Assembly: GCF_045679555.1 (NCBI RefSeq)
Contig: NC_092092.1
Location: 15,891,591 to 15,955,590 of the forward strand
Reading direction: 5' to 3'
Source of the DNA: Salvelinus alpinus
Lineage: Eukaryota > Chordata > Actinopteri > Salmoniformes > Salmonidae
Length of the DNA: 64,000 nt
Part shown: positions 324-62,530 of the stretch, piece after piece
Numbering within the stretch: position 1 is the first letter of the stretch
Layout: the number at the start of each line of letters is the position of its first letter
The notes under the pieces: generated by a model
What the model was told of the DNA's origin: nothing
What the model saw: only the letters and a program-made list of their open reading frames with translations
Databases searched by the model: none
Translations under genes and position numbers: made by a program

Positions 324-400
324 CATTTTATCAAGGTGTTCAATCGATCTGTGGATCTCTCCTTGAGCCTCGTCATAGTACGTGTAACGGAACCGTTGAC
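324..400 (-). CDS. memo1: memo1 coding exon 7
   Basis: Encodes [20 protein letters not shown] and then HLDKM (77 nt). Acceptor is CCCACAG at 402-401, donor GTAAAC at 323-322. The first codon (GGT) is completed by the last G of exon 6 at 6386. The acceptor and the first ten exon bases (391-400) are also the first unit of the 34-bp array that follows. Confidence 0.93.
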
Positions 401-3400
401 CTGTGGGAAGGAGGTAAACATATTAACCGTTGGCCTGTGGGAAAGAGGTAAACATATTAACCTTTGACCTGTGGGAAGGAGGTAGACATATTAACCTTTG
501 ACCTGTGGGAAGGAGGTAAACATATTAACCTTTGACCTGTGGGAAGGAGGTAAACATATTAACCGTTGACCTGTGGGAAGGAGGTAAACATATTAACCGT
601 TGACCTGTGGGAAGGAGGTAGACATATTAACCTTTGACCTGTGGGAAAGAGGTAAACATATTAACCCTTGACCTGTGGGAAAGAGGTAAACATATTAACC
701 TTTGACCTGTGGGAAAGAGGTAAACATATTAACCTTTGACCTGTGGGAAGGAGGTAGACATATTAACCTTTGACCTGTGGGAAGGAGGTAAACATATTAA
801 CCTTTGACCTGTGGGAAGGAGGTAGACATATTAACCGTTGGCCTGTGGGAAGGAGGTAAACAAATTAACCTTTGACCTGTGGGAAGGAGGTAGACATATT
901 AACCGTTGGCCTGTGGGAAGGAGGTAAACATATTAACCTTTGACCTGTGGGAAGGAGGTAGACATATTAACCGTTGGCCTGTGGGAAGGAGGTAAACATA
1001 TTAACCTTTGACCTGTGGGAAGGAGGTAGACATATTAACCGTTGGCCTGTGGGAAGGAGGTAGACATATTAACCGTTGACCTGTGGGAAAGAGGTAAACA
1101 TATTAACCGTTGACCTGTGGGAAGGAGGTAGACATATTAACCTTTGACCTGTGGGAAGGAGGTAAACATATTAACCGTTGACCTGTGGGAAAGAGGTAAA
1201 CATATTAACCGTTGACCTGTGGGAAGGAGGTAAACATATTAACCGTTGACCTGTGGGAAGGAGGTAAACATATTAACCTTTGACCTGTGGGAAGGAGGTA
1301 GACATATTAACCTTTGACCTGTGGGAAGGAGGTAAACATATTAACCTTTGACCTGTGGGAAGGAGGTAAACATATTAACCTTTGACCTGTGGGAAAGAGG
1401 TAGACATATTAACCGTTGGCCTGTGGGAAGGAGGTAAACATATTAACCTTTGACCTGTGGGAAGGAGGTAAACATATTAACCGTTGGCCTGTGGGAAGGA
1501 GGTAAACAAATTAACCTTTGACCTGTGGGAAAGAGGTAAACATATTAACCGTTGACCTGTGGGAAGGAGGTAGACATATTAACCTTTGACCTGTGGGAAA
1601 GAGGTAAACATATTAACCTTTGGCCTGTGGGAAGGAGGTAGACATATTAACCTTTGACCTGTGGGAAGGAGGTAGACATATTAACCTTTGACCTGTGGGA
1701 AGGAGGTAAACATATTAACCTTTGACCTGTGGGAAAGAGGTAAACATATTAACCCTTGACCTGTGGGAAGGAGGTAAACATATTAACCCTTGACCTGTGG
1801 GAAAGAGGTAAACATATTAACCGTTGGCCTGTGGGAAGGAGGTAAACATATTAACCTTTGACCTGTGGGAAAGAGGTAAACATATTAACCCTTGACCTGT
1901 GGGAAAGAGGTAAACATATTAACCCTTGACCTGTGGGAAGGAGGTAAACATATTAACCCTTGACCTGTGGGAAAGAGGTAAACATATTAACCGTTGGCCT
2001 GTGGGAAGGAGGTAAACATATTAACCTTTGACCTGTGGGAAGGAGGTAAACATATTAACCCTTGACCTGTGGGAAAGAGGTAAACATATTAACCCTTGAC
2101 CTGTGGGAAGGAGGTAGACAAATTAACCTTTGACCTGTGGGAAGGAGGTAGACAAATTAACCGTTGGCCTGTGGGAAGGAGGTAAACATATTAACCTTTG
2201 ACCTGTGGGAAGGAGGTAGACAAATTAACCGTTGACCTGTGGGAAGGAGGTAAACATATTAACCTTTGACCTGTGGGAAAGAGGTAAACATATTAACCTT
2301 TGACCTGTGGGAAGGAGGTAAACATATTAACCCTTAAATCATACATTTTCATCACTAATTGTGTATAAAATGGGAAATTACAAGGTTGACAAATGTTGAC
2401 GTCTAAAATAGCATTTTAGAATGATGAATTTACTAATGTTTAAAACTTTTAGGAACACTTGAAAAATATGCAGGTGGTTGAGTTGCCCATTAAAGGAATG
2501 ATATTTAGTCAAAGGTGGCTATTATGGACAACGGAGGACTATAGTTATGGGATTGGTTAGTCTGTCATATCCATATTAGTATTTACTGTCTGTTATCTTC
2601 AAAATCTTTCACAATATTATTCAGTACATTTTACTTGTACTAAGCATTTAAAACTGTAATTAATTTACATATACAGTGAGCTCCAAAAGTGAAGTAGTGA
2701 CATGTGTAGTTTTGTCCCTGTCCTCCAGCACTTTAGATTGGAAATGATACAATGACGGCGAGGTTACAGTGCAGACTGTCAGCTTTAATCAGAGGGTATT
2801 TTCATCCACATCGGGTGAAGCATTTACAATTTACAGGACTTATTGTACATGGGTACACCCCCATTTTAAGGGACCAACAGTATTATGACTACCTTTTGGA
2901 TGCTTTTGCTGGTTGTTTTGGTTGTTTTCAGATTATGTTGTGCCCAATAGAAATGAATGGTAAATAATGTATTATTTACCCCAGGAAGAGTAGCTGCCGC
3001 CTTGGCAGGAACTAATGGGGATCCATAATAAATACAAATATAAATAAGAATAGAATACATTTATAAACACTTCTACATTAATGTGGATGCTACCATGATT
3101 ACAGATAATCCTGAATCAGTCGTGAATAATAAAATGGGTGAGAAAGTTAGACGCACAAATATCACAGAGCAAAACAATGCTAACCTCTGTTGTTATTGTG
3201 AGAGGTTAGCAAAACAATGCTAACCTCTGTTGTTATTGTGAGAGGTTAGCAAAACAATGCTAACCTCTCTTGTTATTGTGAGAGGTTAGCAAAACAATGC
3301 TAACCTCTGTTGTTATTGTGAGAGTTTAGCAAAACAATGCTAACCTCTGTTGTTATTGTGAGAGGTTAGCAAAACAATGCTAACCTCTGTTATTATTGTG

Positions 3401-6400: not shown

Positions 6401-9400
6401 CCGAGGAGATGATGAACAAGTTAGAGGGATCAGCCAGATACCTGCTGAGCAGTTTCCCATAATCCTGTTCTTTAGACTCACTGAGGGCTCCCACCAGCAC
6501 CGGGACAATGCTGAGCTCATCTTTATGACTGCAGTAGGAAAGGGAGACAACACATTACAAGTCTGTACGGGTGTGGTGCACTGGGGACAGTTACCTGACC
6601 GAGATGGTAGAAGCCTTTACAGAGACTGAACACGTGTAACCCAACCCGATTAAAAAGAAGGTGCGGGTGTTAACCCAACCCGATCAAAAAGAAGGTGCGG
6701 GTGTTAACCCAACCCGATCAAAAAGAAGGTGCGGGTGTTAACCCAACCCGATCAAAAAGAAGGTGCGGGTGTTAACCCAACCCGATCAAAAAGAAGGTGC
6801 GGGTGTTAACCCAACCCGATCAAAAAGAAGGTGCGGGTGTTAACCCAACCCGATCAAAAAGAAGGTGCGGGTGTTAACCCAACCCGATCAAAAGGTGCGG
6901 GTGTTAACCCAACCCGATCAAAAGGTGCGGGTGTTAACCCAACCCGATCAAAAGGTGCGGGTGTTAACCCAACCCGATCAAAAGGTGCGGGTGTTAACCC
7001 AACCCGATCAAAAGGTGCGGGTGTTAACCCAACCCGATCAAAAGGTGCGGGTGTTAACCCAACCCGATCAAAAGGTGCGGGTGTTAACCCAACCCGATCA
7101 AAAGGTGCGGGTGTTAACCCAACCCGATCAAAAGGTGCGGGTGTTAACCCAACCCGATCAAAAGGTGCGGGTGTTAACCCAACCCGATCAAAAGGTGCGG
7201 GTGTTAACCCAACCCGATCAAAAGGTGCGGGTGTTAACCCAACCCGATCAAAAGGTGCGGGTGTTAACCCAACCCGATCAAAAGGTGCGGGTGTTAACCC
7301 AACCCGATCAAAAGGTGCGGGTGTTAACCCAACCCGATCAAAAGGTGCGGGTGTTAACCCAACCCGATCAAAAGGTGCGGGTGTTAACCCAACCCGATCA
7401 AAAGGTGCGGGTGTTAACCCAACCCGATCAAAAGGTGCGGGTGTTAACCCAACCCGATCAAAAGGTGCGGGTGTTAACCCAACCCGATCAAAAGGTGCGG
7501 GTGTTAACCCAACCCGATCAAAAGGTGCGGGTGTTAACCCAACCCGATTAAAAGGTGCGGGTGTTAACCCAACCCGATTAAAAGGTGCGGGTGTTAACCC
7601 AACCCGATTAAAAGGTGCGGGTGTTAACCCAACCCGATTAAAAGGTGCGGGTGTTAACCCAACCCGATTAAAAGGTGCGGGTGTTAACCCAACCCGATTA
7701 AAAGGTGCGGGTGTTAACCCAACCCGATCAAAAGGTGCGGGTGTTAACCCAACCCGATCAAAAGGTGCGGGTGTTAACCCAACTCGATTAAAAGGTGCGG
7801 GTGTTAACCCAACCCGATTAAAAGGTGCGGGTGTTAACCCAACCTGATTAAAAGGTACGGGTGTTAACCCAACCCGATTAAAAGGTGTGGGTGTTAACCC
7901 AACCTGATTAAAAGGTGCGGGTATTAACCCAACCTGATTAAAAGGTGCGGGTGTTAACCCAACCTGATTAAAAGGTGCGGGTGTTAACCCAACCTGATTA
8001 AAAGGTGTGGGTGTTTATTGAGAGGGTCCATTAATTGAGCATGCAGGCTTTACTTAGATTAGATTCTTGATTCATAATGAATCTCCATTAGTGACAGCTA
8101 GTTTTAGTGGGGTCCGACATAGTAAACAACCAATCATTAGTAAACAATCATAAACCATAGTAATGATGCAAACCATCCTGGGGCTGAGGGAGACAGAACT
8201 ACACAAAATGTCAAGGCAAACCCACAGATCTACTCCATTTGTCATGAGGTCCTGCTGGCTCCCACAACAGGCCAGGTCTGTATAGTGCCTCTCTTACTGT
8301 ACTCTCCACTGATGGATGGCTTGTGACGAACCAAGCAGACAACCCTGACAGACATGTACTCTGTCTTACCTCTCCATGGCTTTAGCTGTGTAAGGCAGGT
8401 GCATTTCAATGCTGTGCTCATCCTCGTCTGTCTGAAGACTCATCCTCTCAAACATCCCAGTCTTCCAGAGCTCAGCATAGACTACAGAGGGAGAGAGGGG
8501 TGAGGATTCAATATACAGAGGTCAACATAGACTAGAGAGGGAGAGAGGGGTGAGGATTCAATATACAGAGGTCAACATAGACTACAGAGGGAGGTGAGGA
8601 TTCAATATACAGAGGTCAACATAGACTAGAGAGGGAGGTGAGGATTCAATATACAGAGGTCAACATAGACTACAGAGGGAGGTGAGGATTCAATATACAG
8701 AGGTCAACATAGACTACAGAGGGAGAGAGGGGTGAGGATTCAATATACAGAGGTCAACATAGACTACAGAGGGAGGTGAGGATTTAATATACAGAGGTCA
8801 ACATAGACTAGAGGGGGGGAGAGGGGTGAGGATTCAATATACAGAGGTCAACATAGACTACAGAGGGAGGTGAGGATTCAATATACAGAGGTCAACATAG
8901 ACTAGAGGGGGAGGTGAGGATTCAATATACAGAGGTCAACATAGACTAGAGAGGGAGAGAGGATTCAATATACAGAGGTCAACATAGACTAGAGAGGGGT
9001 GAGGATTCAATATACAGAGGTCAACATAGACTACAGAGGGAGGTGAGGATTCAATATACAGAGGTCAACATAGACTAGAGAGGGGTGAGGATTCAATATA
9101 CAGAGGTCAACATAGACTAGAGGGAGGTGAGGATTCAATATACAGAGGTCAACATAGACTACAGAGGGAGAGAGGGGTGAGGATTCAATATACAGAGGTC
9201 AACATAGACTACAGAGGGAGTTGAGGATTCAATATACAGAGGTCAACATAGACTACAGAGGGAGGTGAGGATTCAATATACAGAGGTCAACATAGACTAC
9301 AGAGGGAGGTGAGGATTCAATATACAGAGGTCAACATAGACTACAGAGGGAGGTGAGGATTTAATATACAGAGGTCAACATAGACTAGAGAGGGAGGTGA

Positions 9401-12400
9401 GGATTCAATATACAGAGGTCAACATAGACTAGAGAGGGAGGTGAGGATTCAATATACAGAGGTCAACATAGACTAGAGAGGGAGGTGAGGATTCAATATA
9501 CAGAGGTCAACATAGACTAGAGGGGGGGAGAGGATTCAATATACAGAGGTCAACATAGACTAGAGAGAGGGGTGAGGATTCAATATACAGAGGTCAACAT
9601 AGACTACAGAGGGAGGTGAGGATTTAATATACAGAGGTCAACATAGACTACAGAGGGAGGTGAGGATTCAATATACAGAGGTCAACATAGACTAGAGAGA
9701 GGGGTGAGGATTCAATATACAGAGGTCAACATAGACTAGAGAGGGAGGTGAGGATTCAATATACAGAGGTCAACATAGACTAGAGAGGGAGGTGAGGATT
9801 CAATATACAGAGGTCAACATAGACTAGAGAGGGAGGTAGGGATTCAATATACAGAGGTCAACATAGACTACAGAGGGAGGTGAGGATTCAATATACAGAG
9901 GTCAACATAGACTAGAGGGAGGTGAGGATTCAATATACAGAGGTCAACATAGACTACAGAGGGAGTTGAGGATTCAATATACAGAGGTCAACATAGACTA
10001 CAGAGGGAGGTGAGGATTCAATATACAGAGGTCAACATAGACTACAGAGGGAGGTGAGGATTCAATATACAGAGGTCAACATAGACTACAGAGGGAGATG
10101 AGGATTCAATATACAGAGGTCAACATAGACTAGAGGGAGGTGAGGATTCAATATACAGAGGTCAACATAGACTAGAGGGAGGGGTGAGGATTCAATATAC
10201 AGAGGTCAACATAGACTAGAGAGGGAAGTGAGGATTTAATATACAGAGGTCAACATAGACTAGAGAGGGAGGTGAGGATTCAATATACAGAGGTCAACAT
10301 AGACTAGAGAGGGAGGTGAGGATTCAATATACAGAGGTCAACATAGACTAGAGAGGGAGGTGAGGATTTAATATACAGAGGTCAACATAGACTAGAGAGG
10401 GAGGTGAGGATTTAATATACAGAGGTCAACATAGACTAGAGAGGGAGGTGAGGATTCAATATACAGAGGTCAACATAGACTAGAGAGAGGGGTGAGGATT
10501 CAATATACAGAGGTCAACATAGACTAGAGAGGGAGGTGAGGATTTAATATACAGAGGTCAACATAGACTAGAGAGGGAGGTGAGGATTTAATATACAGAG
10601 GTCAACATAGACTAGAGAGGGAGGTGAGGATTTAATATACAGAGGTCAACATAGACTAGAGAGGGAGGTGAGGATTTAATATACAGAGGTCAACATAGAC
10701 TAGAGAGGGAGGTGAGGATTTAATATACAGAGGTCAACATAGACTAGAGAGGGAGGTGAGGATTTAATATACAGAGGTCAACATAGACTAGAGAGGGAGG
10801 TGAGGATTCAATATACAGAGGTCAACATAGACTAGAGAGGGAGGTGAGGATTCAATATACAGAGGTCAACATAGACTAGAGAGGGAGGTGAGGATTCAAT
10901 ATACAGAGGTCAACATAGACTAGAGAGGGAGGTGAGGATTCAATATACAGAGGTCAACATAGACTAGAGAGGGAGGTGAGGATTCAATATACAGAGGTCA
11001 ACATAGACTAGAGAGGGAGGTGAGGATTCAATATACAGAGGTCAACATAGACTAGAGAGGGAGGTGAGGATTCAATATACAGAGGTCAACATAGACTAGA
11101 GAGAGAGGTGAGGATTCAATATACAGAGGTCAACATAGACTAGAGAGGGAGGTGAGGATTCAATATACAGAGGTCAACATAGACTAGAGAGGGAGGTGAG
11201 GATTCAATATACAGAGGTCAACATAGACTACAGAGGGAGGTGAGGATTCAATATACAGAGGTCAACATAGACTAGAGAGGGAGGTGAGGATTCAATATAC
11301 AGAGGTCAACATAGACTAGAGGGAGGGGTGAGGATTCAATATACAGAGGTCAACATAGACTAGAGAGGGAGGTGAGGATTTAATATACAGAGGTCAACAT
11401 AGACTAGAGAGGGAGGTGAGGATTCAATATACAGAGGTCAACATAGACTAGAGAGGGGGTGAGGATTCAATATACAGAGGTCAACATAGACTAGAGAGGG
11501 AGGTGAGGATTCAATATACAGAGGTCAACATAGACTAGAGAGGGAGGTGAGGATTTAATATACAGAGGTCAACATAGACTAGAGAGGGAGGTGAGGATTC
11601 AATATACAGAGGTCAACATAGACTAGAGAGGGAGGTGAGGATTCAATATACAAGAGGGAGGTGAGGATTTAATATACAGAGGTCAACATAGACTAGAGAG
11701 GGAGGTGAGGATTTAATATACAGAGGTCAACATAGACTAGAGAGGGGTGAGGATTCAATATACAGAGGTCAACATAGACTAGAGAGAGGGGTGAGGATTC
11801 AATATACAGAGGTCAACATAGACTAGAGAGGGAGGTGAGGATTTAATATACAGAGGTCAACATAGACTAGAGAGGGAGGTGAGGATTTAATATACAGAGG
11901 TCAACATAGACTAGAGAGGGAGGTGAGGATTTAATATACAGAGGTCAACATAGACTAGAGAGGGAGGTGAGGATTTAATATACAGAGGTCAACATAGACT
12001 AGAGAGGGAGGTGAGGATTCAATATACAGAGGTCAACATAGACTAGAGAGGGAGGTGAGGATTTAATATACAGAGGTCAACATAGACTAGAGAGAGGGGT
12101 GAGGATTCAATATACAGAGGTCAACATAGACTAGAGAGGGAGGTGAGGATTTAATATACAGAGGTCAACATAGACTAGAGAGGGAGGTGAGGATTCAATA
12201 TACAGAGGTCAACATAGACTAGAGAGGGAGGTGAGGATTTAATATACAGAGGTCAACATAGACTAGAGAGGGAGGTGAGGATTTAATATACAGAGGTCAA
12301 CATAGACTAGAGAGGGAGGTGAGGATTTAATATACAGAGGTCAACATAGACTAGAGAGGGAGGTGAGGATTCAATATACAGAGGTCAACATAGACTAGAG

Positions 12401-15400
12401 AGGGAGGTGAGGATTTAATATACAGAGGTCAACATAGACTAGAGAGGGAGGTGAGGATTTAATATACAGAGGTCAACATAGACTAGAGAGGGAGGTGAGG
12501 ATTCAATATACAGAGGTCAACATAGACTAGAGAGGGAGGTGAGGATTTAATATACAGAGGTCAACATAGACTAGAGAGGGAGGTTTAGAGGTGATGATTA
12601 TATGAGTACAGAGGTCAACATAGACTAGAGAGGGAGGTGAGGATTTAATATACAGAGGTCAACATAGACTAGAGAGGAAGGGAGGTTTAATATACAGAGG
12701 TCGATAGACTAGAGATGGGAGGTGAGGATTTAATATACAGAGGTCAACATAGACTAGAGAGGGAGGTGAGGATTCAATATACAGAGGTCAACATAGACTA
12801 GAGAGGGAGGTGAGGATTTAATATACAGAGGTCAACATAGACTAGAGAGAGGGGTGAGGATTCAATATACAGAGGTCAACATAGACTAGAGAGGGAGGTG
12901 AGGATTCAATATACAGAGGTCAACATAGACTAGAGAGGGAGGTGAGGATTTAATATACAGAGGTCAACATAGACTAGAGAGGGAGGTGAGGATTTAATAT
13001 ACAGAGGTCAACATAGACTAGAGAGGGAGGTGAGGATTCAATATACAGAGGTCAACATAGACTAGAGAGGGAGGTGAGGATTTAATATACAGAGGTCAAC
13101 ATAGACTAGAGAGAGGGGTGAGGATTCAATATACAGAGGTCAACATAGACTAGAGAGGGAGGTGAGGATTCAATATACAGAGGTCAACATAGACTAGAGA
13201 GGGAGGTGAGGATTTAATATACAGAGGTCAACATAGACTAGAGAGGGAGGTGAGGATTCAATATACAGAGGTCAACATAGACTAGAGAGGGAGGTGAGGA
13301 TTTAATATACAGAGGTCAACATAGACTAGAGAGGGAGGTGAGGATTTAATATACAGAGGTCAACATAGACTAGAGAGGGAGGTGAGGATTTAATATACAG
13401 AGGTCAACATAGACTAGAGAGGGAGGTGAGGATTCAATATACAGAGGTCAACATAGACTAGAGAGGGAGGTGAGGATTTAATATACAGAGGTCAACATAG
13501 ACTAGAGAGAGGGGTGAGGATTCAATATACAGAGGTCAACATAGACTAGAGAGGGAGGTGAGGATTCAATATACAGAGGTCAACATAGACTACAGAGGGA
13601 GGTGAGGATTCAATATACAGAGGTCAACATAGACTAGAGAGGGAGGTGAGGATTCAATATACAGAGGTCAACATAGACTAGAGAGGGAGGTGAGGATTTA
13701 ATATACAGAGGTCAACATAGACTACAGAGGGAGGTGAGGATTCAATATACAGAGGTCAACATAGACTAGAGAGGGAGGTGAGGATTCAATATACAGAGGT
13801 CAACATAGACTAGAGAGAGGGGTGAGGATTTAATATACAGAGGTCAACATAGACTAGAGAGGGAGGTGAGGATTTAATATACAGAGGTCAACATAGACTA
13901 GAGAGGGAGGTGAGGATTCAATATACAGAGGTCAACATAGACTACAGAGGGAGGTGAGGATTCAATATACAGAGGTCAACATAGACTAGAGAGGGAGGTG
14001 AGGATTCAATATACAGAGGTCAACATAGACTAGAGAGGGAGGTGAGGATTCAATATACAGAGGTCAACATAGACTACAGAGGGAGGTGAGGATTCAATAT
14101 ACAGAGGTCAACATAGACTAGAGAGGGAGGTGAGGATTCAATATACAGAGGTCAACATAGACTAGAGAGGGAGGTGAGGATTTAATATACAGAGGTCAAC
14201 ATAGACTAGAGAGGGAGGTGAGGATTTAATATACAGAGGTCAACATAGACTAGAGAGGGAGGTGAGGATTCAATATACAGAGGTCAACATAGACTACAGA
14301 GGGAGGTGAGGATTCAATATACAGAGGTCAACATAGACTAGAGAGGGAGGTGAGGATTTAATATACAGAGGTCAACATAGACTAGAGAGGGAGGTGAGGA
14401 TTCAATATACAGAGGTCAACATAGACTACAGAGGGAGGGGTGAGGATTTAATATACAGAGGTCAACATAGACTAGAGAGGGAGGTGAGGATTTAATATAC
14501 AGAGGTCAACATAGACTAGAGAGGGAGGTGAGGATTCAATATACAGAGGTCAACATAGACTAGAGGGGGGGAGAGGATTCAATATACAGAGGTCAACATA
14601 GACTAGAGAGAGGGGTGAGGATTTAATATACAGAGGTCAACATAGACTAGAGAGGGAGGTGAGGATTCAATATACAGAGGTCAACATAGACTACAGAGGG
14701 AGGTGAGGTATCAACATGCACATTATTACTGGTGAAGTGAGGCTCGTATTAGCATTTGACTGCGAGTCATTCGTTCAGTCGCACCGATACGTGTTTGGCA
14801 GCGTCAGTGAGAACGTCTCTTTTCCAGTATCAGTCAGATGATTGGTCCTCTGAGGACAACTCGTGTTGTTTTTGTGTCAAGCAATCAAGACTGGATTAGG
14901 GCTGTGACGGTCATGGGATTTCAGATGACGGTAATTGGCCAGCCAAATGACCATGGTCTCGGTAATAACTTGAAGAATAATCATTAGGAACATTTTCTCC
15001 TGTCCTTCGCTCCGGCCTGCATGTGCTGCCATATGAAGAGAATAGAAGGGGCGACCCCATTCAAGTCAATGGTAGTGCAATGGTTGGACTGGAGGCCCTT
15101 GTGACTGTACCAATAGGAGCAAAACAGGAAGTGTACCCATCAATATGTGCTGTGATTTGTTGATTCAGCTCAATTTCCTCAATTCTTCACTACGAGATTC
15201 GGTTCCAACTTATTGGGAGAGGGAGTACTCCCCCTCTAGATTTTGCGAGTTTTCAGTCTTGGTATGTGTGTTTGCTTATGTAGGATGTGTTTGCTTGTGT
15301 AGCCAGTGCTTCCTTGCTCATGTAGGATGTGTTTGCTTGTGTAGCCAGTGCTTCCTTGCTCATGTAGGATGTGTTTGCTTGTGTAGCCAGTGCTTCCTTG

Positions 15401-18400: not shown

Positions 18401-18771
18401 ACAGAAACTGGACTTGGGCCTGGAATAACGTGTTTTTTTTGGGCAAATAAACATAAATGAACTACAGTGTCTAAAGTTCATTTCTCCTCTGTACCGTAAC
18501 CCCAAAACCACAACACGTACCGAAACATGGGTTTGGTGAACTGTTACACCCCTAGTTATGAATATAACTGCCGTTGCCTGAAGGAGGGAACGAGTTACAA
18601 CATATTTTGGACCAAACCACCAGCAGAGTTTGGGCTCACTGAAGAGTGGTACTGAATTGAGGAAATGGATGCAAGCCCCGCTATTATAGCAGGGAGGCGG
18701 GGACAACTAGAAATGATCCATACCCTTCTGGTCAATCCTGAGGTGTTTTATAAACCTCAGCAGAGGACAGG

Positions 18772-18858
<87 letters not shown>

Positions 18859-21800
18859 CTACCCTTCTGGTCAATCCTGAGGTCGTAGAGAGGTGTTTTA
18901 TAAACCTCAGCAGAGGACAGGGCACAGCGGGACAGAGGAACATGGTGAGACGGACCCAAGATGAACACCCTGCGACTACAGGGGAAAGAGAGGACTCAAG
19001 TCAGCTCACTGTCCTCAGTAGGACTCAGATCAGCATTGCAGCTCAGTGGACCAGTCATCATGGACCAGTCATCGTGGACCAGTCATCAGGCCACCAGTAA
19101 GGTCGGCCCGACCAGGCTTCGCTCACGCTGTTCCAAGGTGAGGCTGTGACAGAGGCTACTCCAATAGTGCTAACTACTGTCTGTGTGAGGTAACTACAGG
19201 CTGATAGTTCCTGCATGGTGAAACAGGGCAGGCTAAGGGTTTGATAAGGAGGGAAAATGTAGAAAAATGATGATTTGATGATACTTAAAAAGTGTCCATG
19301 AAAATGTATTTTGTTACTGAGAGAATATGTTAAATTTAGAAACCTGACTGAACATATGTAACAGACGTAATGACTTACGTAACAGAAGGGTCTATTTGTT
19401 TGTAGGCGTGTGCAGCACAGGCACCGCAGTAGGAATACCCAGCATGCCTGAAAACACATTACAACACACCATTACAACCTGCCTGGCTGACAACACATTA
19501 CAACCTGCCTGGCTGACAACACATTACAACCTGCCTGGCTGACAACACATTACAACCTGCCTGGCTGACAACACATTACAACCTGCCTGGCTGACAACAC
19601 ATTACAACCTGCCTGGCTGCCAACACATTACAACCTGCCTGGCTGACAACACATTACAACCTGCCTGGCTGACAACACATTACAACCTGCCTGGCTGACA
19701 ACACATTACAACCTGCCTGGCTGACAACACATTACAACCTGCCTGGTTAAAAACACATTACAACCTGCCTGGCTGACAACACATTACAACCTGCCTGGCT
19801 GCCAACACATTACAACCTGCCTGGCTGACAACACATTACAACCTGCCTGGCTGACAACACATTACAAGACACCATTACAACCTGCCTGGCTGACAACACA
19901 CCATTACAACCTGCCTGGCTGAAAACACATTACAACACACCATTACAACCTGCCTGGCTGACAACACACCATTACAACCTGCCTGGCTGAAAACACATTA
20001 CAACACACCATTACAACCAATAGAAAACATGACCCCCATTGCCCCAATCACAACAATCACATTTCAGTCATTCATATGCTGTTATCCAATAATACTCAGA
20101 ATGAGTTGATGACAAGACGAGGCCTTTTCCTCGACTAGTAGTGGTGCTTACGGTGCTATGATGGCTCTAGCAGGGCTGACAGTGGAAGGTGCTTCAGACA
20201 GCCAACCCTCTAGTTGTGTATTCAGCTGGGAGCCTGCAGAGAGGGAAGAAAAACACTTCATTAATCCACACCAAACAGGAAGGACTCTTCTGCTGTACCC
20301 CAATGCCTCTTACACACAGGGGGAACAGAAATGACTCTTCTGCTGTACAATTATACCCTATAATACCCTTTACCCTTCAGTCCTGATTGGAAGTGATTCT
20401 AAAATACCCTATGTGGAAAATGATTGGTGGAAAAACAATTGGAACCATTTCCCTGTTTGACCACTAGGTTTTATGGGGTATTATGACACCTCCACTGTGG
20501 GGCTCTTTAGTGCACTATATAGGGAATAGGGTCCAATAGGGCTCTGGTCTAAAGTAGTGCACTATATAGGGAATAGGGTGCCATTTGGGATGCCCCCTGA
20601 ATGATGTCACCTAATCCCACACCAGCAAAGCTCCAGGCACTCTGACCTTTCTGGACCACTCTGCTGATCCCTGACATTTAAGGCTACGTCCCAAATGGTG
20701 CCTTGCTCAAGGGCACAATGGAGGATTAATGTCCCTTTAATCAATGTGACCCCCGACATCACTGTCTGACTGTATCTTGTTGGCTGGCTTCATCAGCCAG
20801 CACCTTCTTATGTGTGACTGACTGGGCTGGAGCAGAGAGATAACAGAGAGACCTTGTTATGTGTGACTGGGCTGGAGCAGAGAGATAGCAGGGAGACCTT
20901 GTTATGTGTGACTGGGCTGGGCTGGAGCAGAGAGATAGCAGGGAGACCTTGTTATGTGTGACTGACTGGGCTGGAGCAGAGAGATAACAGGGAGACCTTG
21001 TTATGTGTGACTGACTGGGCTGGAGCAGAGAGATAACAGAGAGACCTTGTTATGTGTGACTGACTGGGCTGGAGCAGAGAGATAACAGGGAGACCTTGTT
21101 ATGTGTGACTGACTGGGCTGGAGCAGAGAGATAACAGGGAGACCTTGTTATGTGTGACTGACTGGGCTGGAGCAGAGAGATAACAGGGAGACCTTGTTAT
21201 GTGTGAGCAGAGAGATAACAGGGAGACCTTGTTATGTGTGACTGACTGGGCTGGAGCAGAGAGATAACAGAGAGACCTTGTTATGTGTGACTGACTGGGC
21301 TGGAGCAGAGAGATAACAGGGAGACCTTGTTATGTGTGACTGACTGGGCTGAAGCAGAGAGATAACAGGGAGACCTTGTTATGTGTGACTGACTGGGCTG
21401 GAGCAGAGAGATAACAGGGAGACCTTGTTATGTGTGACTGGGCTGGAGCAGAGAGATAACAGGGAGACCTTGTTATGTGTGACTGACTGGGCTGGAGCAG
21501 AGAGATAACAGGGAGACCTTGTTATGTGTGACTGACTGGGCTGGAGCAGAGAGATATCAGGGAGACCTTGTTATGTGTGACTGACTGGGCTGGAGCAGAG
21601 AGATAACAGGGAGACCTTGTTATGTGTGACTGACTGGGCTGGAGAAGAGAGATAACAGGGAGACCTTGTTATGTGTGACTGACTGGGCTGGAGCAGAGAG
21701 ATAACAGGGAGACCTTGTTATGTGTGACTGACTGGGCTGGAGCAGAGAGATAACAGGGAGACCTTGTATGTGTGACTGACTGGGCTGGAGCAGAGAGATA

Positions 21801-28526: not shown

Positions 28527-28566
<40 letters not shown>

Positions 28567-31500
28567 TAAACATGAACGGGCCAAAACGGACATGGCAGCA
28601 GGTCAAAATCAAATACAAGAACATTCTGCAGAATGGTATGGTCCCTGACTAATATTTAACAAAGCACAAGCATATATTGTACCCAGAAGGTGCCTGCTCA
28701 CACATTGTCTGTACTGTTTTAGCAGTGAAAAAGAATACCCACAGACAAGGCACGGGTGGTGGGTCACCAAAGGCTGACCTTACCCCAGCAGAGGACATGG
28801 CCTTGGAGCTAAATAAAGGCAGGCCCGTCTTAGAGGGGATCCCTGGGGGGAAAGAGACGAGCATAGGTTCCTCCCAAGATGCCACCCGCTTCATTCAAGG
28901 TATGTCCTTCCATCTCTACATGGGATACAACCACATTCATATTGAATCAATTTGGACTGTCTGACTTTGGTTTACCTATTGCCTTGCAGTGTCTGGCAGC
29001 ACAGTGTTCCTGTTAGAGCCACCAGCACAAGCACCAGACGATGCTGATCCAGTGAGTACTCCATCAAAGGCATACTGTAGGCCTGGCATGTCTTGTCTAC
29101 TAGCTTCAATATGAATCCGATTAAATGTGATAGGGTGAAGGCCCCAGTGCAGCAGCAACAGCACATGATGGAGACGATGATGAGGAGGAGACCATCTCTC
29201 TGGATTCCAGAAGGCATGAGGTATCATGTTAAGACTGTGAAAGTACTATTTACTCTACAATGGTGAGGAGTCCTCATCAAAATCAAAAAATCTAATTTCT
29301 TTTACAGGACCCAGATGCTATACAGTGGGAAAACCAGCCTGGCAACATAGTGCGTATTAATAAAAGGACACCATATCCTGCCAAATTCCAGCTGCGCTAA
29401 TTGTATTGTGTTCACAGAGCTCACAAGCTATCAGAAAGTTGTATGGCAACCACCTCCGGCGCCAAATAGAACTGGCAGACATAGACATTCAGTACAAGAA
29501 GAAAAAGATGGAAAATCTTGCACTGGAGTCCGAAATAAAAAAGAGGACAATTAGGAAACTGGACCTTGAAATAAAAAAACTTGAGAGGGAGGTGAGATAT
29601 GCCTTCAATGTACACTGTATGCTAACTGTAACACAAATGTATTAATCATTATTTTTCTTTCCTCCCCCAGCTCCAAGAAGATGACACAGCTCAAAATAAA
29701 AATTAGGTATATTCTCGTAAAGTCAAGTGAGCCATGACATATGAGCTCTTATTGTGAGCACACAGGACGGTGGCATCTTTCTAAGTTTTTTTTAATTTTC
29801 CCAGCAATCAGTACAACCAAGTCATCGTTATAAGGCATCGCCCTCTTTTGCCCACCCCCCCAGCACCAGGTGTGGCCACTAGCCTATATGAAGGCCCAAA
29901 ATTGTGTGTTCCTTTCTGCTCTGACAATGGCATGCCCATTCGTGCGAGATGTGGTGGATGAAGAAGCACTTGTGCTGAGGAGAGCCTTCAGGCGAGAAAG
30001 GGTCTTCAGGGACCGGTTGGACCCACTGGCCTTCCCTGATGACCATCTATATGAAAGATACAGGTTTTCTGCAGATGGCATCAGGTATCTATGCAGACTA
30101 CTGGGTCCCAGGATTAAGCACCGCACTGCACGGAGCCATGCACTGAGTGTGGAGCAAATGGTTTGTGTGGCCTTGCGCTTTTTTGCTAGTGGAGCCTTCC
30201 TGTACTCAGTGGGGGATGCAGAACAGCTGAACAAGGCCACAATTTGCCGCACAATAAGGAGTGTGTGTCTGGCTATCAAAGCATTAGCAGATGTCTTCAT
30301 CTCCTTCCCTGGCCACAGAAGACTCTGTGACATCAAAGAGGAGTTCTATAGGATTGCAGGTAAGAGGATCTACAAATTACAGGACAACTGTTAACACATA
30401 GTAGGATACTCATTACTTTGTGTGACAGGTTTCCCCAATGTCATTGGTGCAGTGGACTGCACACACATAAGGATAAAAGCCCCCTCAGGTGCCCATGAGG
30501 CCGATTTTGTGAATAGGAAATCCTTTCACAGCATTAATGTTCAGGTGAACATAACTTTTTGATATTGTCCATTGACGAACACTCTGCATTGCCAGTGATG
30601 TGCATTGATTGGTGTAATATTCCTCATCTTATGATTTCAGATGGTCTGCAATGCTGACTGTGTGATCAGCAATGTTGTGGCAAAATGGCCTGGCTCAGTC
30701 CATGACTCCAGAATCTTTCGGGCCTCTGAAATCTATCAGTGCCTATCACAAGGTAAGCCACACAACCCCTATTTATAACCATCATGGCTGTGTCAAGAAT
30801 ATCACTGTGTTTATGAGGTAGTAATGATGAGATTTTGTGTTGACAGGTGAATTCTCTGGTGTGTTGCTGGGAGACAGGGGGTATGGCTGCCAGCCTTTTC
30901 TCCTGACACCTTTCACAGACCCCCAGGAAGCACAGCAGGCCTACAACCATGCCCATGCCAGGACCAGGGCCAGAGTTGAAATGACCTTTGGCCTCCTGAA
31001 GGCACGCTTTCACTGCCTTCACAAATTAAGGGTCAGCCCTGTTAGGGCATGTGATATTACTGTGGCTTGTGCTGTCCTCCACAATGTGGCCTGCCTGAGG
31101 AAGGAGAGGGCCCCCAGAGTGCCACCAGCCATGGACTGGGACAATCCGGCAATCTTCCCTGATGACGACAGTGGTCGGCTGCTGAGGGACCAATATGTGT
31201 TGAATTATTTTAGTTAGTATGTGTGCTTTCAATTTTGGTTAAATATGTCCTGCGGTGGCAGAGGAATTTGGGTTTTTTTGGGTTCGTTTTTTGACGAATT
31301 TGGCCTCTTATGATGTTTGTGCGGTATACTGTGTGTAATACAAGGCTGCAGGGAGGCTACTGCATCCATTCATTTGTCTGTTCAGTTGATGTGTATGGAT
31401 TTGTCCTGCATTTATTTTAGTGTGCAGACATGCAGGGTGTGTTATATACAGACCTTTGAATGTGTATGTATCATTTTGTATAATATGCTTGGATTCTGTG

Positions 31501-33714: not shown

Positions 33715-33720
33715 AAAAAA
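33715..33720 (-). terminator. RNA polymerase III terminator for tRNA-His
   Basis: Run of six T on the minus strand 33 bases after the tRNA end. This is farther away than most tRNA terminators but is the first T run of four or more apart from none nearer. Confidence 0.5.
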
Positions 33721-33752
33721 TAACCCTTTTGCCGTGACATTGTGTATCGCAA

Positions 33753-33824
33753 TGCCGTGACCCGGATTCGAACCGGGGTTGCTGCGGCCACAACGCAGAG
33801 TACTAACCACTATACGATCACGGC
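33753..33824 (-). tRNA. tRNA-His (GTG anticodon)
   Basis: 72 nt with a paired acceptor stem (GCCGTGA with TCACGGC), D loop AGTGGTTAGT, anticodon GTG at 33791-33789 in a CTGCG/CGCAG stem, T arm CCGGTTCGAATCCGG and discriminator A. Matches the vertebrate tRNA-His closely. Box A and box B look intact, so it may be functional. A nine-base copy of its 3' end (tgccgtgac) lies at 33730-33738. Confidence 0.95.
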
Positions 33825-38272: not shown

Positions 38273-38539
38273 GATTTACTTTGGAAACATGACTGTCATG
38301 TACATTTTTTGCAGTGTACAATTATAACTAGGAATTCTTCAAACGGGAACCATGTACTTGGTCTGTTTCACTCTGCCAGTTTGCCTTTGAAGAACTGATG
38401 TCCTTCTAGCCTGGTCCCTGTTTATGCTGCTTTAACAACTCCTATATAGTCAATAGCAAAACAGCACAAAGATCTGGGACAAGGCTAACTTCCACTCATG
38501 CTATTTATCAAAAAATAACACTCAAACAGCAACACAGTA
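38273..38539. repeat. Intergenic with a palindromic dispersed element
   Basis: 38406-38489 begins ctagcctggtccc and ends gggacaaggctaac, imperfect inverted ends about 80 bp apart, with salmonid-repeat-like 'gatctgggac'. It looks like a small MITE. It lies between the strn poly(A) region and the arrays. Confidence 0.5.
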
Positions 38540-38558
38540 AGTTAAGACTTAATATATA

Positions 38559-38564
38559 TTTATT
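38559..38564 (-). promoter_or_regulatory. Poly(A) signal of strn
   Basis: AATAAA on the minus strand followed by AT-rich sequence. Confidence 0.5.
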
Positions 38565-38927
38565 ATAGGTATTTGCAATTTTACACCCAATGTTTTTGTA
38601 AAAACGGACACCATTGTGAAAACCTTTCCGCATGAACTCCACCTCCCTCAAAAAAACTGTTCTGTAAAATAACTTCTGTTTCAAGACCTTTTTAAAGCAA
38701 AGGCACATTTGTCAATAAGTGTTCTTAAAAGGAAAGCAGAGAGAGAGAAAGGCTGGCTGGAGGCAGGCAGAGTAGACAGAGTCAGTCTTAGAAACGGCAA
38801 GGAATAGTGAGATGCCACAGCCAGCCAGTCAGCCTTCAGTAAGTACCCCACATCTCCATCACAACACAACTCTGAACCTGACTTGGAGGAGAGGAGGGAC
38901 CAGGGAGCAGACAGGGGTCTAAATGGG

Positions 38928-39345
38928 ATACGCCTGGGGTTCTGGGGAAATGAGAGGCCTGGGGTTCTGGGGAAATGAGAAGCCTGGGGTTCTGGGGAAA
39001 ATGAGAGGCCTGGGGTTCTGGGGAAATGAGAGGACTGGGGTTCTGGGGAAATGAGAGGCCTGGGGAAATGAGAGGCCTGGGGTTCTGGGGAAATGAAATG
39101 AGAGGCCTGGGATTCTGGGGAAATGAGAGACCTGGGGTTCTGGGGAAATGAGAGGCCTGGGGTTCTGGGGAAATGAGAGGCCTGGGGTTCTGGGGAAATG
39201 AGAGGCCTGGGGTTCTGGGGAAATGAGAGGCCTGGGGTTCTGGGGAAATGAGAGGCCTGGGTTTCTGGGGAAATGAGAGGCCTGGGGTTCTGGGGAAATG
39301 AGAGGCCTGGGGTTCTGGGGAAATGAGAGGCCTGGGGTTCTGGTT
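38928..39345. repeat. 25-bp minisatellite in the strn 3' UTR (about 17 copies)
   Basis: Unit core 'ggcctggggttctggggaaa' then tgaga, with a few truncated units near 39060. A Pro/Ser-rich minus-strand frame of 147 residues is repeat translation. Confidence 0.92.
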
Positions 39346-39839
39346 AATGGGCTTGGTGACATGGGGAGGGGGTAGGGTTAGGGGGTTAGGGCATGGTGCT
39401 CCACCTCTCCAGTGAGTCTACACTATAAAACACCTGTCAGTCTGTCTTCAACCCCTCGCTAGCTGTGAAGACAGAGCATAAGACTAGTCTGAACCATAGA
39501 GTCAGTCTGTGTGGGTGTTCATTGGATGCAGGTTGAGGAGGAGGGTCTCTGTGGCCGGTCACACCCAGGGGCCTGCCTGGATTATAGAGGGAGGAGGAAG
39601 TCTTGTGCCCAATAGCAGTTCTCCTAACAGACCTCCCAGTCAACCACAGCCCCTCTGGAGGAGGGCCTATTCTGGGGCTTAGTAGAGGCTATTGGCTGCA
39701 CCATCCACCAGTCAAAACAGGGAACCAGTAGCGTGAGAGGGGATATGTGTGAGGTGAAGTCTGCGTAGCACCCCACACGCCCACATCTATTGGTCCCTGG
39801 AGCTGGGAAGCTGTGTCAGTGGACTGTGATTGGTCCTCG

Positions 39840-40009
39840 TCATACGAACACCTTGGCGAGGGCGTCTGCCCCAGCGGAGGCGATGTAGGCCTTAGAAGGG
39901 TGGAAGGCCACGTCATGGATAGACTCATCATTCTTCTTCCTGTGAGCTGTAAACTCCTGGATACACGTCTTAGTTTCCAGGTTCCACAGACGAATAGAGC
40001 AGTCATGAC
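39840..40009 (-). CDS. strn: strn last coding exon
   Basis: Encodes [39 protein letters not shown] and the C-terminus ending ALAKVFV, stop TGA at 39842-39840. Final WD repeat. Acceptor CCCTCAG at 40011-40010. Confidence 0.97.
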
Positions 40010-43000
40010 CTGAGGGAGGAGAGGAGAGAGGGATTAGGGAGGGGAAAATTATCAAAAAGGAGAGCAGGAAGAAGGGAGAGGAAAGTGAACAGTAGGTGGG
40101 CGACAAGGCAGTTCACATAAAGTATACAGCTCTGGTGTCCCCCAGGGCTCAGGTCTAGGCCCTCTCCTGTTTCATAACGTGTACAGCTCTGGTGTCCCCC
40201 AGGGCTCAGTTCTGGGCCCTCTCCTGTTCTGGTGTCCCCCAGGGCTCAGTTCTGGGCCCTCTCCTGTTTAATAAAGTGTACAGCTCTGGTGTCCCCCAGG
40301 GCTCAGTTCTGGGCCCTTCCTGTTCTGGTGTCCCCCGGGCTCAGTTCTGGGCCCTCTCCTGTTCTGGTGTCCCCCAGGGCTCAGTTCTGGGCCCTCTCCT
40401 GTTTTATAAAGGGTACAGCTCTGGTGTCCCCCAGGGCTCAGTTCTGGGCCCTCTCCTGTTCTGGTGTCCCCCAGGGCTCAGTTCTGGGCCCTCTCCTGTT
40501 TTATAAAGTGTACAGCTCTGGTGTCCCCCAGGGCTCAGTTCTGGGCCCTCTCCTGTTCTGGTGTCCCCCTGGGCTCAGTTCCAGGCCCTCTCCTGTTCTG
40601 GTGTCCCCCAGGGCTCAGTTCTGGGCCCTCTCCTGTTTTATAAAGGGTACAGCTCTGGTGTCCCCCAGGGCTCAGTTCTGGGCCCTCTCCTGTTCTGATG
40701 TCCCCCAGGGCTCAGTTCTGGGCCCTCTCCTGTTTTATAAAGTGTACAGCTCTGGTGTCCCCCAGGGCTCAGTTCTGGGCCCTCTCCTGTTCTGGTGTCC
40801 CCCAGGGCTCAGTTCTGGGCCCTCTCCTGTTTTATAAAGTGTACAGCTCTGGTGTCCCCCAGGGCTCAGTTCTAGGCCCTCTCCTGTTTTATAAAGTCTG
40901 TCATATCATCACGTGCAGAATGACAAGGTATATATCTAGCTGAGTATGTTAGAAATCATTGTTATGGAGAGTTACTTACTGCCAGACATCAGATAGAGCC
41001 CGTTGGGGTCGACAGCTAGACTGGTAACAGCATCCAGGTGGGCCACCATTGAGTGGATCAGCTTCCCTGAAGAGTTCAATTGGACAACATTTGTTCATTT
41101 AATGTTTCTGCTTTCCGTGTGAAGGTTAAGCTTTCTTTGAGTGCAGTAATTAAAATGTGAATTCATTCCGCTTTTAAAAGCATCTATAAAATAAACTGCA
41201 GTCAGAAACCAAACGGTCAGGGTGAGGTAAAACCTGGAAGACCGAGAGATTCCACTTTCAGATTGAAGGACTGATGGAGGACCATGAAGTCATTTAGTTC
41301 TGTGAGGAAGACACCGTTGGAGTGAAAAACTCATAGAACTGTCAAAATGTCTGTTACCCGTGTTGTTGTCGTAGAACTTGATGTGTTTGTCCTCCTCAGC
41401 GGTGATGGTGATGGGGAGGGTGGGGTGACTCAGCACCTTGTTAATCTGACAGGGGGTACCTGGGGAGAGGAGAGATACATTTTTAGGACGTTGGTTCATA
41501 TCTGGCTCCAAGGACCATGCACATTAATAACACACCTTATTAGCCGTAAAGGCCTCCAAAACTGGCTTCAAATAGCTTCCTTTACTTTTTAACAAATACT
41601 TTTTAACTCCCTCCCTCCCACCCATCTTCCTGCTCCCCTCCCCACCTCCTCCCTCCCTATCTCCCCTCCCTATCTCCCTCCCTCTCACCGCTCTTCCTGC
41701 TCCCCTCCCTCCAGACCTACCCGTCTCTGCAGCAGACTCCAGGCTGAGCACCAGTTGCTGTGTCTCCATGTTGAAGAGGCCAATCTGACCGCTGGTGAAC
41801 GATGTCACCATGTGGGCGGGGTCACTGCAGACCACGTCCACTGATGAGGGCACGCCAAACTCTGAAGCAGCGAACCATAGTTGTTGATTTCACCACACAA
41901 TTTGAACATGATAAACGTACAACACAAATGAATCAGCGTAGGATTCTGTTGACATGAATGAAGAGTACCTTTACTGTGGAAGGTGGCCAGGGCAGGCTTG
42001 GTACTGGAGGCGTCCCACAGCCTGACGGTGCCGTCTCCAGAGCAAGACAGGAGTCTCTGATGAACACTACTGTACACCAGGCCCCACACTGAGTCAGTAT
42101 GACCACACAGCGCCCCACGCAGGACAGACGGCTCTATTACACACAGGGAGGAGGACATGTTAGAGAGACAGACAGATGGAAAAACAGACAGAGAACAGAG
42201 AGGGAGAGAGAGGGGGCAGTGTGAACAGACAGACACACAGACAGAAAGACACACAGAGACAGAGACAAAGACAGACACAGAGACAAAGACAGACACAGAG
42301 ACAAACACAGACACAGCCAGACAGACAGCCAGAGCACAGCGAGAGCGAGAGACAGAAATAACAGAGAGAGAGAGACAGACAAACAGCCAGCCCTCTGTTC
42401 TTACCGTATGAATCGTATGGGTCGAGGTTAGGGTTAGGTTCTTACCGTGTGAATCGTATGGGTCGAGGTTAGGGTTAGGTTCTTACCGTATGAATCGTAT
42501 GGGTCGAGGTTAGGGTTAGGTTCTTACCGTATGAATCGTATGGGTCGAGGTTAGGGTTAGGTTCTTACCGTATGAATCGTATGGGTCGAGGTTAGGGTTA
42601 GGTTCTTACCGTATGAATCGTATGGGTCGAGGTTAGGGTTAGGTTCTTACCGTGTGAATCGTATGGGTCGAGGTTAGGGTTAGGTTCTTACCGTATGAAT
42701 CGTATGGGTCGAGGTTAGGGTTAGGTTCTTACCGTATGAATCGTATGGGTCGAGGTTAGGGTTAGGTTCTTACCGTGTGAATCGTATGGGTCGAGGTTAG
42801 GGTTAGGTTCTTACCGTATGAATCGTATGGGTCGAGGTTAGGGTTAGGTTCTTACCGTATGAATCGTATGGGTCGAGGTTAGGGTTAGGTTCTTACCGTG
42901 TGAATCGTATGGGTCGAGGTTAGGGTTAGGTTCTTACCGTATGAATCGTATGGGTCGAGGTTAGGGTTAGGTTCTTACCGTATGAATCGTATGGGTCGAG

Positions 43001-46000
43001 GTTAGGGTTAGGTTCTTACCGTGTGAATCGTATGGGTCGAGGTTAGGGTTAGGTTCTTACCGTATGAATCGTATGGGTCGAGGTTAGGGTTAGGTTCTTA
43101 CCGTGTGAATCGTATGGGTCGAGGTTAGGGTTAGGTTCTTACCGTATGAATCGTATGGGTCGAGGTTAGGGTTAGGTTCTTACCGTGTGAATCGTATGGG
43201 TCGAGGTTAGGGTTAGGTTCTTACCGTATGAATCGTATGGGTCGAGGTTAGGGTTAGGTTCTTACCGTGTGAATCGTATGGGTCGAGGTTAGGGTTAGGT
43301 TCTTACCGTATGAATCGTATGGGTCGAGGTTAGGGTTAGGTTCTTACCGTGTGAATCGTATGGGTCGAGGTTAGGGTTAGGTTCTTACCGTATGAATCGT
43401 ATGGGTCGAGGTTAGGGTTAGGTTCTTACCGTGTGAATCGTATGGGTCGAGGTTAGGGTTAGGTTCTTACCGTATGAATCGTATGGGTCGAGGTTAGGGT
43501 TAGGTTCTTACCGTGTGAATCGTATGGGTCGAGGTTAGGGTTAGGTTCTTACCGTATGAATCGTATGGGTCGAGGTTAGGGTTAGGTGTGTTCCAGCTCT
43601 GAATGGTCCCGTCCAGCCCTCCACTGAAACACTGCTCTCCTGTACTGCTCATCACAACACACAGCACTGCACCCTGGTGGGCCCTGAACGTGTACATGGG
43701 CTCCACATCTACAGAGGCACTCCTGGAGATAAAGACCGAGACAAATAAAGACTTACACAGTTTAAATCTTTCTACACAATCTGGACTGTATTAAAAAGGT
43801 AACATAGATGTCTTGTGAGAGACATCGGTCTCACCACGTTTGGAGTCAATTCCATTCCCATTCAGTAAATTCAGGAAGGAAACTGACATTCCAATTCTCC
43901 CCCCTGGCGAGAGCAATGTCTCCATGTCTTTAGTAAAGTAGACACTGCGTTGGTTAGGGTTAACATTGTAGTACTATTAGACAGAGAGAGTCAGTCTTAC
44001 TTCTTGCCGGAGGCAGTCTTCTGCAGGTGCCACATCTTCAGCGTGTGGTCCTCTGAGGCGGTGACCAGAACCGGTTCTACGGGGTGGAACGCCAGACCTC
44101 GGATCCCGTCAAAGTGGCTCCGTAGGGTAAACTTGGGGTTCCACGTCCTCCTCAGGGCATCCTTGTTGTTGGACATCTGAGGAGGGGAAACACCATGGAT
44201 TATGGGTAGATAAAGTCTAAGTAAACTGCAGTACAGTACATTTCCCAGGACCGCTGTAGTACTGTACATCCCCCAGGACAGCAGCAGGGCTGTAGTACTG
44301 TACATCCCCCAGGACAGCAGCAGGGCTGTAGTACTGTACATCCCCCAGGACAGCAGCAGGGCTGTAGTACTGTACATCCCCCAGGACAGCAGCAGGGCTG
44401 TAGTACTGTACATCCCCCAGGACAGCAGCAGGGCTGTAGTACTGTACATCCCCCAGGACAGCAGCAGGGCTGTAGTACTGTACATCCCCTAGGACAGCAG
44501 CAGGGCTGTAGTACTGTACATCCCCCAGGACCGCTGTAGTACTGTACATCCCCCAGGACAGCAGCAGGGCTGTAGTACTCTACATCCCCCAGGACAGCAG
44601 CAGGGCTGTAGTTCTGTAAGAGGACTATAATACTAACCCTAACCTGAACGCATATTCATTGAGGAAGGTATTGAGTGGACAAAAGACACAGATTGTGTTC
44701 TTGGCTAGTGGAGAGTGCAGATTAGTATTTAGGGTACCCAAGAGATTCTACTCATGTCGTAGGCCAGACTAACAGCCTCATTAGCTATGCTGAATCCAGC
44801 CAGCTCTCCCAGTCCCTGCTCAGCCCTCCCTCTGCTGTCTTCCTCCTCCCACAGAGGTATATGGATACTTACATCATAGGCCAGACTATCAGCCTCATTA
44901 GACACAGTGAGACCAGCCAGCTCTCCAAGTCCCAGTGCAGCCTCCATGTTCACATCAGGACCCAGGATAAAGGCCGTCCCAGAGGAAGGAGGGACCGGCA
45001 ACACCTCCACTGGAAGAGAAATAGAGACAGTCAATTAATCAACCAATACCCTGCAGGACACTCAAGATGTTTACACTGCGCAAATACATGGTACAATTTA
45101 ACACCTAGTTTAGACTGGCCCTGGGTCCAACACCTAGTATAGACTGGCCCTGGGTCCAACACCTAGTATAGACTGGCCCTGGGTCCAACACCTAGTATAG
45201 ACTGGCCCTGGGTCCAACAACTAGTATAGACTGGCCCTGGGTCCAACACCTAGTATAGACTGGCTCTGGGTCCAACACCTAGTATAGACTGGCCCTGGGT
45301 CCAACACCTAGTATAGACTGTCTCTGGGTCCAACACCTAGTATAGACTAGCCCTGGGTCCAACACCTAGTATAGACTGGCCCTGGGTCCAACACCTAGTA
45401 TAGACTGGCCCTGGGTCCAACACCTAGTATAGACTAGCCCTGGGTCCAACACCTAGTATAGACTGGCCCTGGGTCCAACACCTAGTATAGACTGGCCCTG
45501 GGTCCAACACCTAGTATAGACTGTCTCTGGGTCCAACACCTAGTATAGACTGGCCCTGGGTCCAACACCTAGTATAGACTGGCCCTGGGTCCAACACCTA
45601 GTATAGACTGGCCCTGGGTCCAACACCTAGTATAGACTGGCCCTGGGTCCAACACCTAGTATAGACTGGCCCTGGGTCCAACACCTAGTATAGACTGGCC
45701 CTGGGTCCAACACCTAGTTTAGACTGGCCCTGGGTCCAACACCTAGTTTAGACTGGCCCTGGGTCCAACACCTAGTATAGACTGGCCCTGGGTCCAACAC
45801 CTAGTATAGACTGGCCCTGGGTCCAACACCTAGTATAGACTGGCTCTGGGTCCAACACCTAGTATAGACTAGCCCTGGGTCCAACACCTAGTATAGACTG
45901 GCCCTGGGTCCAACACCTAGTATAGACTGGCCCTGGGTCCAACACCTAGTTTAGACTGGCCCTGGGTCCAACACCTAGTATAGACTGGCCCTGGGTCCAA

Positions 46001-62498: not shown

Positions 62499-62530
<32 letters not shown>

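What the first reader, a model, noticed from the sequence alone, without database searches (positions are those of the whole stretch)
324..43722. Recurrent birth of minisatellites from exon-intron junctions
At least four arrays (391-2334, 8464-14709, 19448-20020, 42403-43592) have a unit that includes the splice site of the exon they touch, in two unrelated genes, at both acceptors and donors. Two partial exon-end duplications (18721-18923 and 44753-44873) look like early two-copy stages. That this happened repeatedly suggests a shared mechanism (for example local re-replication or template switching at exon edges, or ascertainment of arrays that cannot expand into the exon). I know of no description of a locus with this pattern.
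Basis: partly seen in the sequence, partly recalled or inferred. Interest (0 to 1): 0.85.

Follow-up and report, generated by a model that had tools for sequence, protein, structure and literature searches.

The report
Minisatellites grown from splice sites
In a stretch of animal DNA crowded with short repeats, three or four repeat arrays grew out of the border between a gene's coding part and its intron, making dozens of spare copies of a splice site; this kind of repeat has been described before and here is about as common as chance predicts.

Summary
The arrays are real. Three minisatellites carry a splice site plus exon bases in the unit: MEMO1 exon 7 acceptor (34 bp), MEMO1 exon 5 acceptor (44 bp), striatin "S13" donor (41 bp: 33 exonic, 8 intronic). 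A fourth (MEMO1 exon 3 acceptor, 26 bp) is probable; its exonic part matches 6 of 9. Two unexpanded two-copy duplications of exon ends are also real. Arrays fill 65% of the window. With the 29 minisatellites collapsed and placed at random, 1.4-2.2 should span one of 36 splice edges; 3 (P 0.17-0.37) or 4 (P 0.05-0.15) do. Within introns there is no significant preference for exon edges. Only adding the two-copy cases after the fact gives a nominal excess (5: P 0.02-0.06; 6: P 0.005-0.016). The pattern is in print: amphioxus "mirages" and rainbow trout irak3. Most likely these are ordinary minisatellite births (short duplication, later expansion) that happened to include a splice edge and are tolerated because the gene-side copy stays intact. 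Splicing deserves follow-up: 140 and 57 acceptors and 29 near-identical donors, of which only the authentic one gives the normal reading frame.

The parts
324..400 (-). MEMO1 exon M7 (acceptor at 400/401, donor at 324)
   Evidence: tblastn with human MEMO1, 88% identity; AG/GT edges
391..2332 (-). Junction array at the M7 acceptor, 34 bp x 57; 24 intronic + 10 exonic bases per unit; overlaps the first 10 exon bases
   Evidence: TRF; 57 acceptor-pattern sites including the authentic one
8370..8481 (-). MEMO1 exon M5
   Evidence: tblastn 95%; MEMO1 in PDB; edges
8466..14708 (-). Junction array at the M5 acceptor, 44 bp x about 140; 28 intronic + 16 exon-like bases (14 of 16); overlaps the first 16 exon bases
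18721..18774 (-). Second copy of the 3' end of exon M4 with its donor, 11 bp gap, separated from the exon by (GT)41
   Evidence: self-comparison; sequence
18863..18975 (-). MEMO1 exon M4
   Evidence: tblastn 84%; edges
19379..19447 (-). MEMO1 exon M3
   Evidence: tblastn 83%; edges
19448..20018 (-). Probable junction array at the M3 acceptor, 26 bp unit = 17 intronic + 9 bases that match the exon at 6 of 9
42397..43587 (-). Junction array at the striatin S13 donor, 41 bp x 29; 33 exonic + 8 intronic bases; its exon-side end is the true exon end 43553-43585
43553..43722 (-). Striatin exon S13
   Evidence: tblastn 76% with striatin; striatin-3 in PDB; edges
44749..44825 (-). Old second copy of the 3' part of exon S11, 79% identical, donor GT replaced by AT
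   Evidence: sequence
44873..45009 (-). Striatin exon S11
   Evidence: tblastn 67%; edges

Best explanation
This is a minisatellite-rich gene region in which some arrays happened to be founded on a segment that spans a splice site. Step 1 (inferred): a short segment, 26 to 44 bp, is duplicated in tandem by slippage or template switching between a few matching bases, anywhere in the non-coding DNA. Step 2 (inferred from copy divergence): a duplicate may sit unexpanded for a long time, then expand by unequal exchange or slippage. Step 3 (inferred): a segment spanning an exon edge is tolerated because the copy nearest the exon keeps both the whole exon and a splice site, and all other copies fall on the intron side. 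Exon edges look favoured because arrays are very dense and many introns are short. The result is the same kind of structure as the 'mirage' minisatellites of amphioxus.
For: Random seeding of the 29 minisatellites in the array-collapsed locus (23,450 bp, 36 splice edges) gives 1.43 junction arrays over the whole locus, 1.91 if the array-free transposon-bearing stretch is left out and 2.15 if each array stays in its own intron; 3 certain ones have P 0.17, 0.29, 0.37 and 4 have P 0.05, 0.12, 0.15. Per-intron distance test: no significant preference for exon edges (4 within 10 bp against 3.5 expected; 5 within 50 against 6.9; 15 within 150 bp against 12.0, P 0.09). Where both array edges could be read (6 of 21 arrays tried) the founder microhomology is 1-4 bp, in five arrays away from exon edges and in the striatin junction array. 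Two-step history: the striatin array matches the exon 33 of 33, whereas 139 of 139 non-authentic copies of the M5 array share the same two differences from the exon, so that array seems to have expanded from a copy that had already diverged. Trout irak3 introns also carry many minisatellites plus a junction repeat (PMC6763605, section 13).
Against: If the two 2-copy duplications are counted, 5 or 6 of 31 duplications span a splice edge, against 1.6-2.2 expected (P 0.02-0.06 for 5; 0.005-0.016 for 6; no per-intron run was made for these). Outside the arrays the only two local direct duplications found (E below 1e-3, under 1 kb apart) both hit exon ends. That may be because the exon copy is conserved and keeps the duplication recognisable, but it is not explained away. 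Without keeping arrays in their introns, arrays lie near exons more often than expected (12 of 29 within 100 bp against 6.2, P 0.012; 15 of 29 within 150 bp against 7.9, P 0.003). The microhomology comparison rests on one junction array.
Confidence: 0.75

Rival explanations
1. Exon edges are real hot spots for founder tandem duplication, for example through replication-fork or transcription-linked template switching at the change from exon to intron.
For: 5-6 of 31 duplications span splice edges against 1.6-2.2 expected when the two-copy cases are added; both donor and acceptor sides are hit; amphioxus and trout show the pattern in other genes.
Against: No significant excess for arrays alone; no significant edge preference within introns; short breakpoint microhomology in the one readable junction array as in five other arrays. 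Two-copy cases were added after the fact and are easier to see in exons.
Confidence: 0.15
2. The junction arrays are kept or driven because extra splice sites do something useful, such as tuning isoforms or buffering splicing.
For: Splice dinucleotides are intact in many copies: 140 M5 sites and 57 M7 sites matching the acceptor pattern and 29 S13 donors, each count including the authentic site.
Against: Of the alternative sites none keeps an open reading frame at M5 (139) or S13 (28); at M7 one of 56 has no stop within the window, but it shifts the frame. Intact copies are expected from recent homogenisation alone; many other arrays are as uniform.
Confidence: 0.05
3. Early stage of intron creation by tandem duplication of a segment carrying AG and GT (Rogers model).
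For: Duplicated splice sites are the raw material of that model (PMC3443670 passages; PMC3087553 passages).
Against: The array copies lie on the intron side of exons that join into an open protein without them. Intron positions were not compared with another species.
Confidence: 0.03

Closest known systems
Amphioxus 'mirage' minisatellites (Adh3, globins BflGb6 and BflGb9)
   Different: Different lineage; here far more copies (29 to about 140 against 6 and 3 in the two BflGb6 haplotypes) and 26-44 bp units (amphioxus: 10-72 bp in Adh3, about 150-160 bp in the globins)
Rainbow trout irak3 and irak3-like intron repeats
   Same: Introns rich in minisatellites; the 5'-most 15-17 nt of exon 5 repeated four times directly upstream of exon 5; exon 7 repeated with splice sites (PMC6763605, section 13 read)
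   Different: Low copy number; reported as a gene-structure detail, not as a class
Human internal tandem repeats at exon-intron boundaries in segmental duplications
   Same: Minisatellites (about 30 bp units) at exon-intron boundaries that change splicing (PMC2812944, passages read)
Intron gain by tandem genomic duplication
   Same: Tandem copies of splice signals (PMC3443670, passages read)
   Different: That duplicates exonic AGGT and makes a new intron; here an existing intron is lengthened

Membership tests
Mirage minisatellite (amphioxus Adh3/globin type) | Tandem repeat array whose unit spans an exon-intron boundary | tested here: met
   M7, M5 and S13 arrays; M3 probable only (6 of 9)
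Mirage minisatellite (amphioxus Adh3/globin type) | Both acceptor and donor boundaries can be involved | tested here: met
   Acceptors M7 and M5, donor S13
Mirage minisatellite (amphioxus Adh3/globin type) | Copies carry AG/GT splice signals | tested here: met
   140, 57 and 29 sites by pattern, authentic ones included
Mirage minisatellite (amphioxus Adh3/globin type) | Coding sequence intact with the authentic sites, so that regular splicing remains possible | tested here: met
   Open frames with the authentic sites; actual splicing not observed
Mirage minisatellite (amphioxus Adh3/globin type) | Length polymorphism and somatic instability | not testable with these tools
   Needs several individuals or reads
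Intron gain by tandem genomic duplication | A new intron inside a former exon | not tested
   Intron positions were not compared with another species; the arrays lie on the intron side of exons that align to the human proteins
Exon-edge-specific duplication mechanism | More junction arrays than random placement gives | tested here: inconclusive
   Arrays alone P 0.05-0.37; with two-copy cases P 0.005-0.06

The most novel reading that the evidence does not exclude
Exon edges in this genome are true hot spots where short tandem duplications are born, on either side of an exon, and some of these then explode into minisatellites with up to about 140 intact-looking splice sites, so that a visible share of all splice edges in this species (here 6 of 36, counting two-copy cases and M3) carries duplicated splice-site segments among which the spliceosome must choose.
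Probability: 0.15. Interest if true: 0.65.

Novelty: new member of a known kind. Interest (0 to 1): 0.35.

Why it matters
The striatin array is also a natural splicing experiment: 29 donors in 41 bp units that are identical except at one position, 4 bases before the exon end, of which only the exon-proximal one gives the normal protein. RNA data would show directly whether exon definition or closeness to the next exon decides donor choice.

Tried and rejected
Tried: exon-edge hot spot (random seeding over the whole locus, in a reduced space and per intron): no significant excess for arrays, a nominal one when two-copy cases are added. The set of 32 arrays was merged by hand from the 106 TRF rows; the three with 2 bp units were dropped from the count of 29. 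An exact self-offset method for founder breakpoints failed because array edges are eroded; a consensus method gave values of 1-4 bp in 6 of the 21 arrays tried (8 of the 29 minisatellites were not given to it); the other 15, the M7, M5 and M3 junction arrays among them, gave negative or large values that I read as edge erosion. By eye on the output the founder microhomology is about 4 bp at M7, 3 at M3 and 2 at M5; this is a reading, not a test, and no chance expectation was computed. A scan of viral contigs for the striatin unit found nothing. Useful function of the extra sites was given low odds because they break the frame. Literature searches. Atlantic cod tandem repeats (PMC5241972, passages), gilthead seabream myostatin-2 (PMC3045353, passages) and a review of duplication (PMC3449122, passages) were looked at and add only background.

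Full report
What is there. The window holds seven exons of MEMO1 (M1-M7) and twelve exons of a striatin gene (here called S7-S18), both on the minus strand. They were placed with human proteins (recalled, used as probes) and the PDB and by their AG/GT edges. Joined, the MEMO1 exons give 219 open codons and S8-S18 are open to the stop codon; the edges of S7 are not certain. Tandem arrays fill 41,650 of 64,000 bases (65%); I merged the TRF rows by hand into 32 arrays, 29 of them with units of 10 bp or more.

Junction arrays. At the M7 acceptor a 34 bp unit holds 24 intronic and 10 exonic bases. At the M5 acceptor a 44 bp unit holds 28 intronic bases and 16 that match the exon at 14 positions; 139 of 139 array copies share the same two differences from the exon, and 1 of 21,894 array-free 16-mers matches the exon as well, which I take to be the exon itself. 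At the S13 donor a 41 bp unit holds the last 33 exonic bases and 8 intronic ones; there are 29 donors and 18 exact copies of the 33-mer including the true one, the others differing at one position. The unit length of 26 fits 17 intronic plus 9 exonic bases, so I call it probable.

Two-copy cases. Outside the arrays, self-comparison finds two local direct duplications (under 1 kb apart, E below 1e-3), and both involve exon 3' ends: M4 (54 of 54 aligned bases identical, one 11 bp gap) and S11 (77 columns, 79%, donor GT now AT). The first is young and fits an early stage; the second is old and degenerate.

Chance. Expected: 1.43 over the whole locus, 1.91 when the array-free, transposon-bearing stretch is left out, 2.15 when each array stays in its own intron. 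Three observed arrays have P 0.17, 0.29 and 0.37; four have 0.05, 0.12 and 0.15. Adding the two-copy cases gives, for five, P 0.02 to 0.06 and, for six, P 0.005 to 0.016 (runs B, B2 and C2; no per-intron run was made for these). Over the whole locus arrays lie near exons more often than expected (12 of 29 within 100 bp against 6.2, P 0.012; 15 of 29 within 150 bp against 7.9, P 0.003), but not significantly once each array is kept in its own intron (15 against 12.0, P 0.09; 5 within 50 bp against 6.9). The closeness to exons therefore mostly reflects short, array-filled introns. No array lies wholly in an exon, where 2.0 would be expected (P 0.12), which fits selection but does not prove it.

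How it works. Where both edges of an array can be read by program (6 of 21 tried) the founder segment was bounded by 1-4 matching bases, in five arrays away from exon edges and in the striatin junction array; the other junction arrays could not be read that way. I infer a short tandem duplication by slippage or template switching, a lag of variable length, then expansion. The copy next to the exon keeps the exon and its splice site whole, so the gene tolerates the rest. The other sites would be harmful if used: none of 139 at M5 and none of 28 at S13 keeps an open frame, and at M7 one of 56 meets no stop within the window but shifts the frame (the last MEMO1 exons lie outside the window). Whether they are used is unknown.

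Known or new. Tandem repeats spanning exon-intron boundaries were named 'mirages' in amphioxus Adh3 and found again in its globin genes, at both boundary types (PMC3087553, passages). [quoted passage not shown] Human minisatellites at exon-intron boundaries are also described (PMC2812944, passages). I met no paper on MEMO1 or striatin arrays in the ten searches listed in Tried and rejected, but none of them named these genes, so I claim nothing about that. I file it as a new member of a known kind.

Noticed in passing
1-64000: Tandem arrays make up 65% of the window (32 arrays, 29 minisatellites), far above the 0.5-3% that the Atlantic cod paper gives as typical for eukaryotic genomes. The intron 49400-58647 measures 9.2 kb and would be 0.9 kb with its arrays collapsed.
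   Followed up: partly
33753-33824: A tRNA-His (GTG) sequence on the minus strand upstream of MEMO1 exon M1, 60.9 bits in Rfam; gene or SINE not decided.
   Followed up: no
30831-31214: Open frame matching DDE_Tnp_4 (E 3e-16), a transposase remnant in the large MEMO1 intron.
   Followed up: no
42397-43587: Each 41 bp unit carries GGTTAGGGTTAGG, telomere-like in letters but coding for PNPN in striatin; two unit variants alternate regularly near the exon, pointing to recent spread of an 82 bp double unit.
   Followed up: partly
56401-56500: A gap of 100 N lies inside the 29 bp array, so copy numbers in this assembly should not be trusted exactly.
   Followed up: no
62396-64000: A CA repeat of about 800 copies begins 8 bp from the presumed acceptor of striatin exon S7 and runs to the end of the window.
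   Followed up: no
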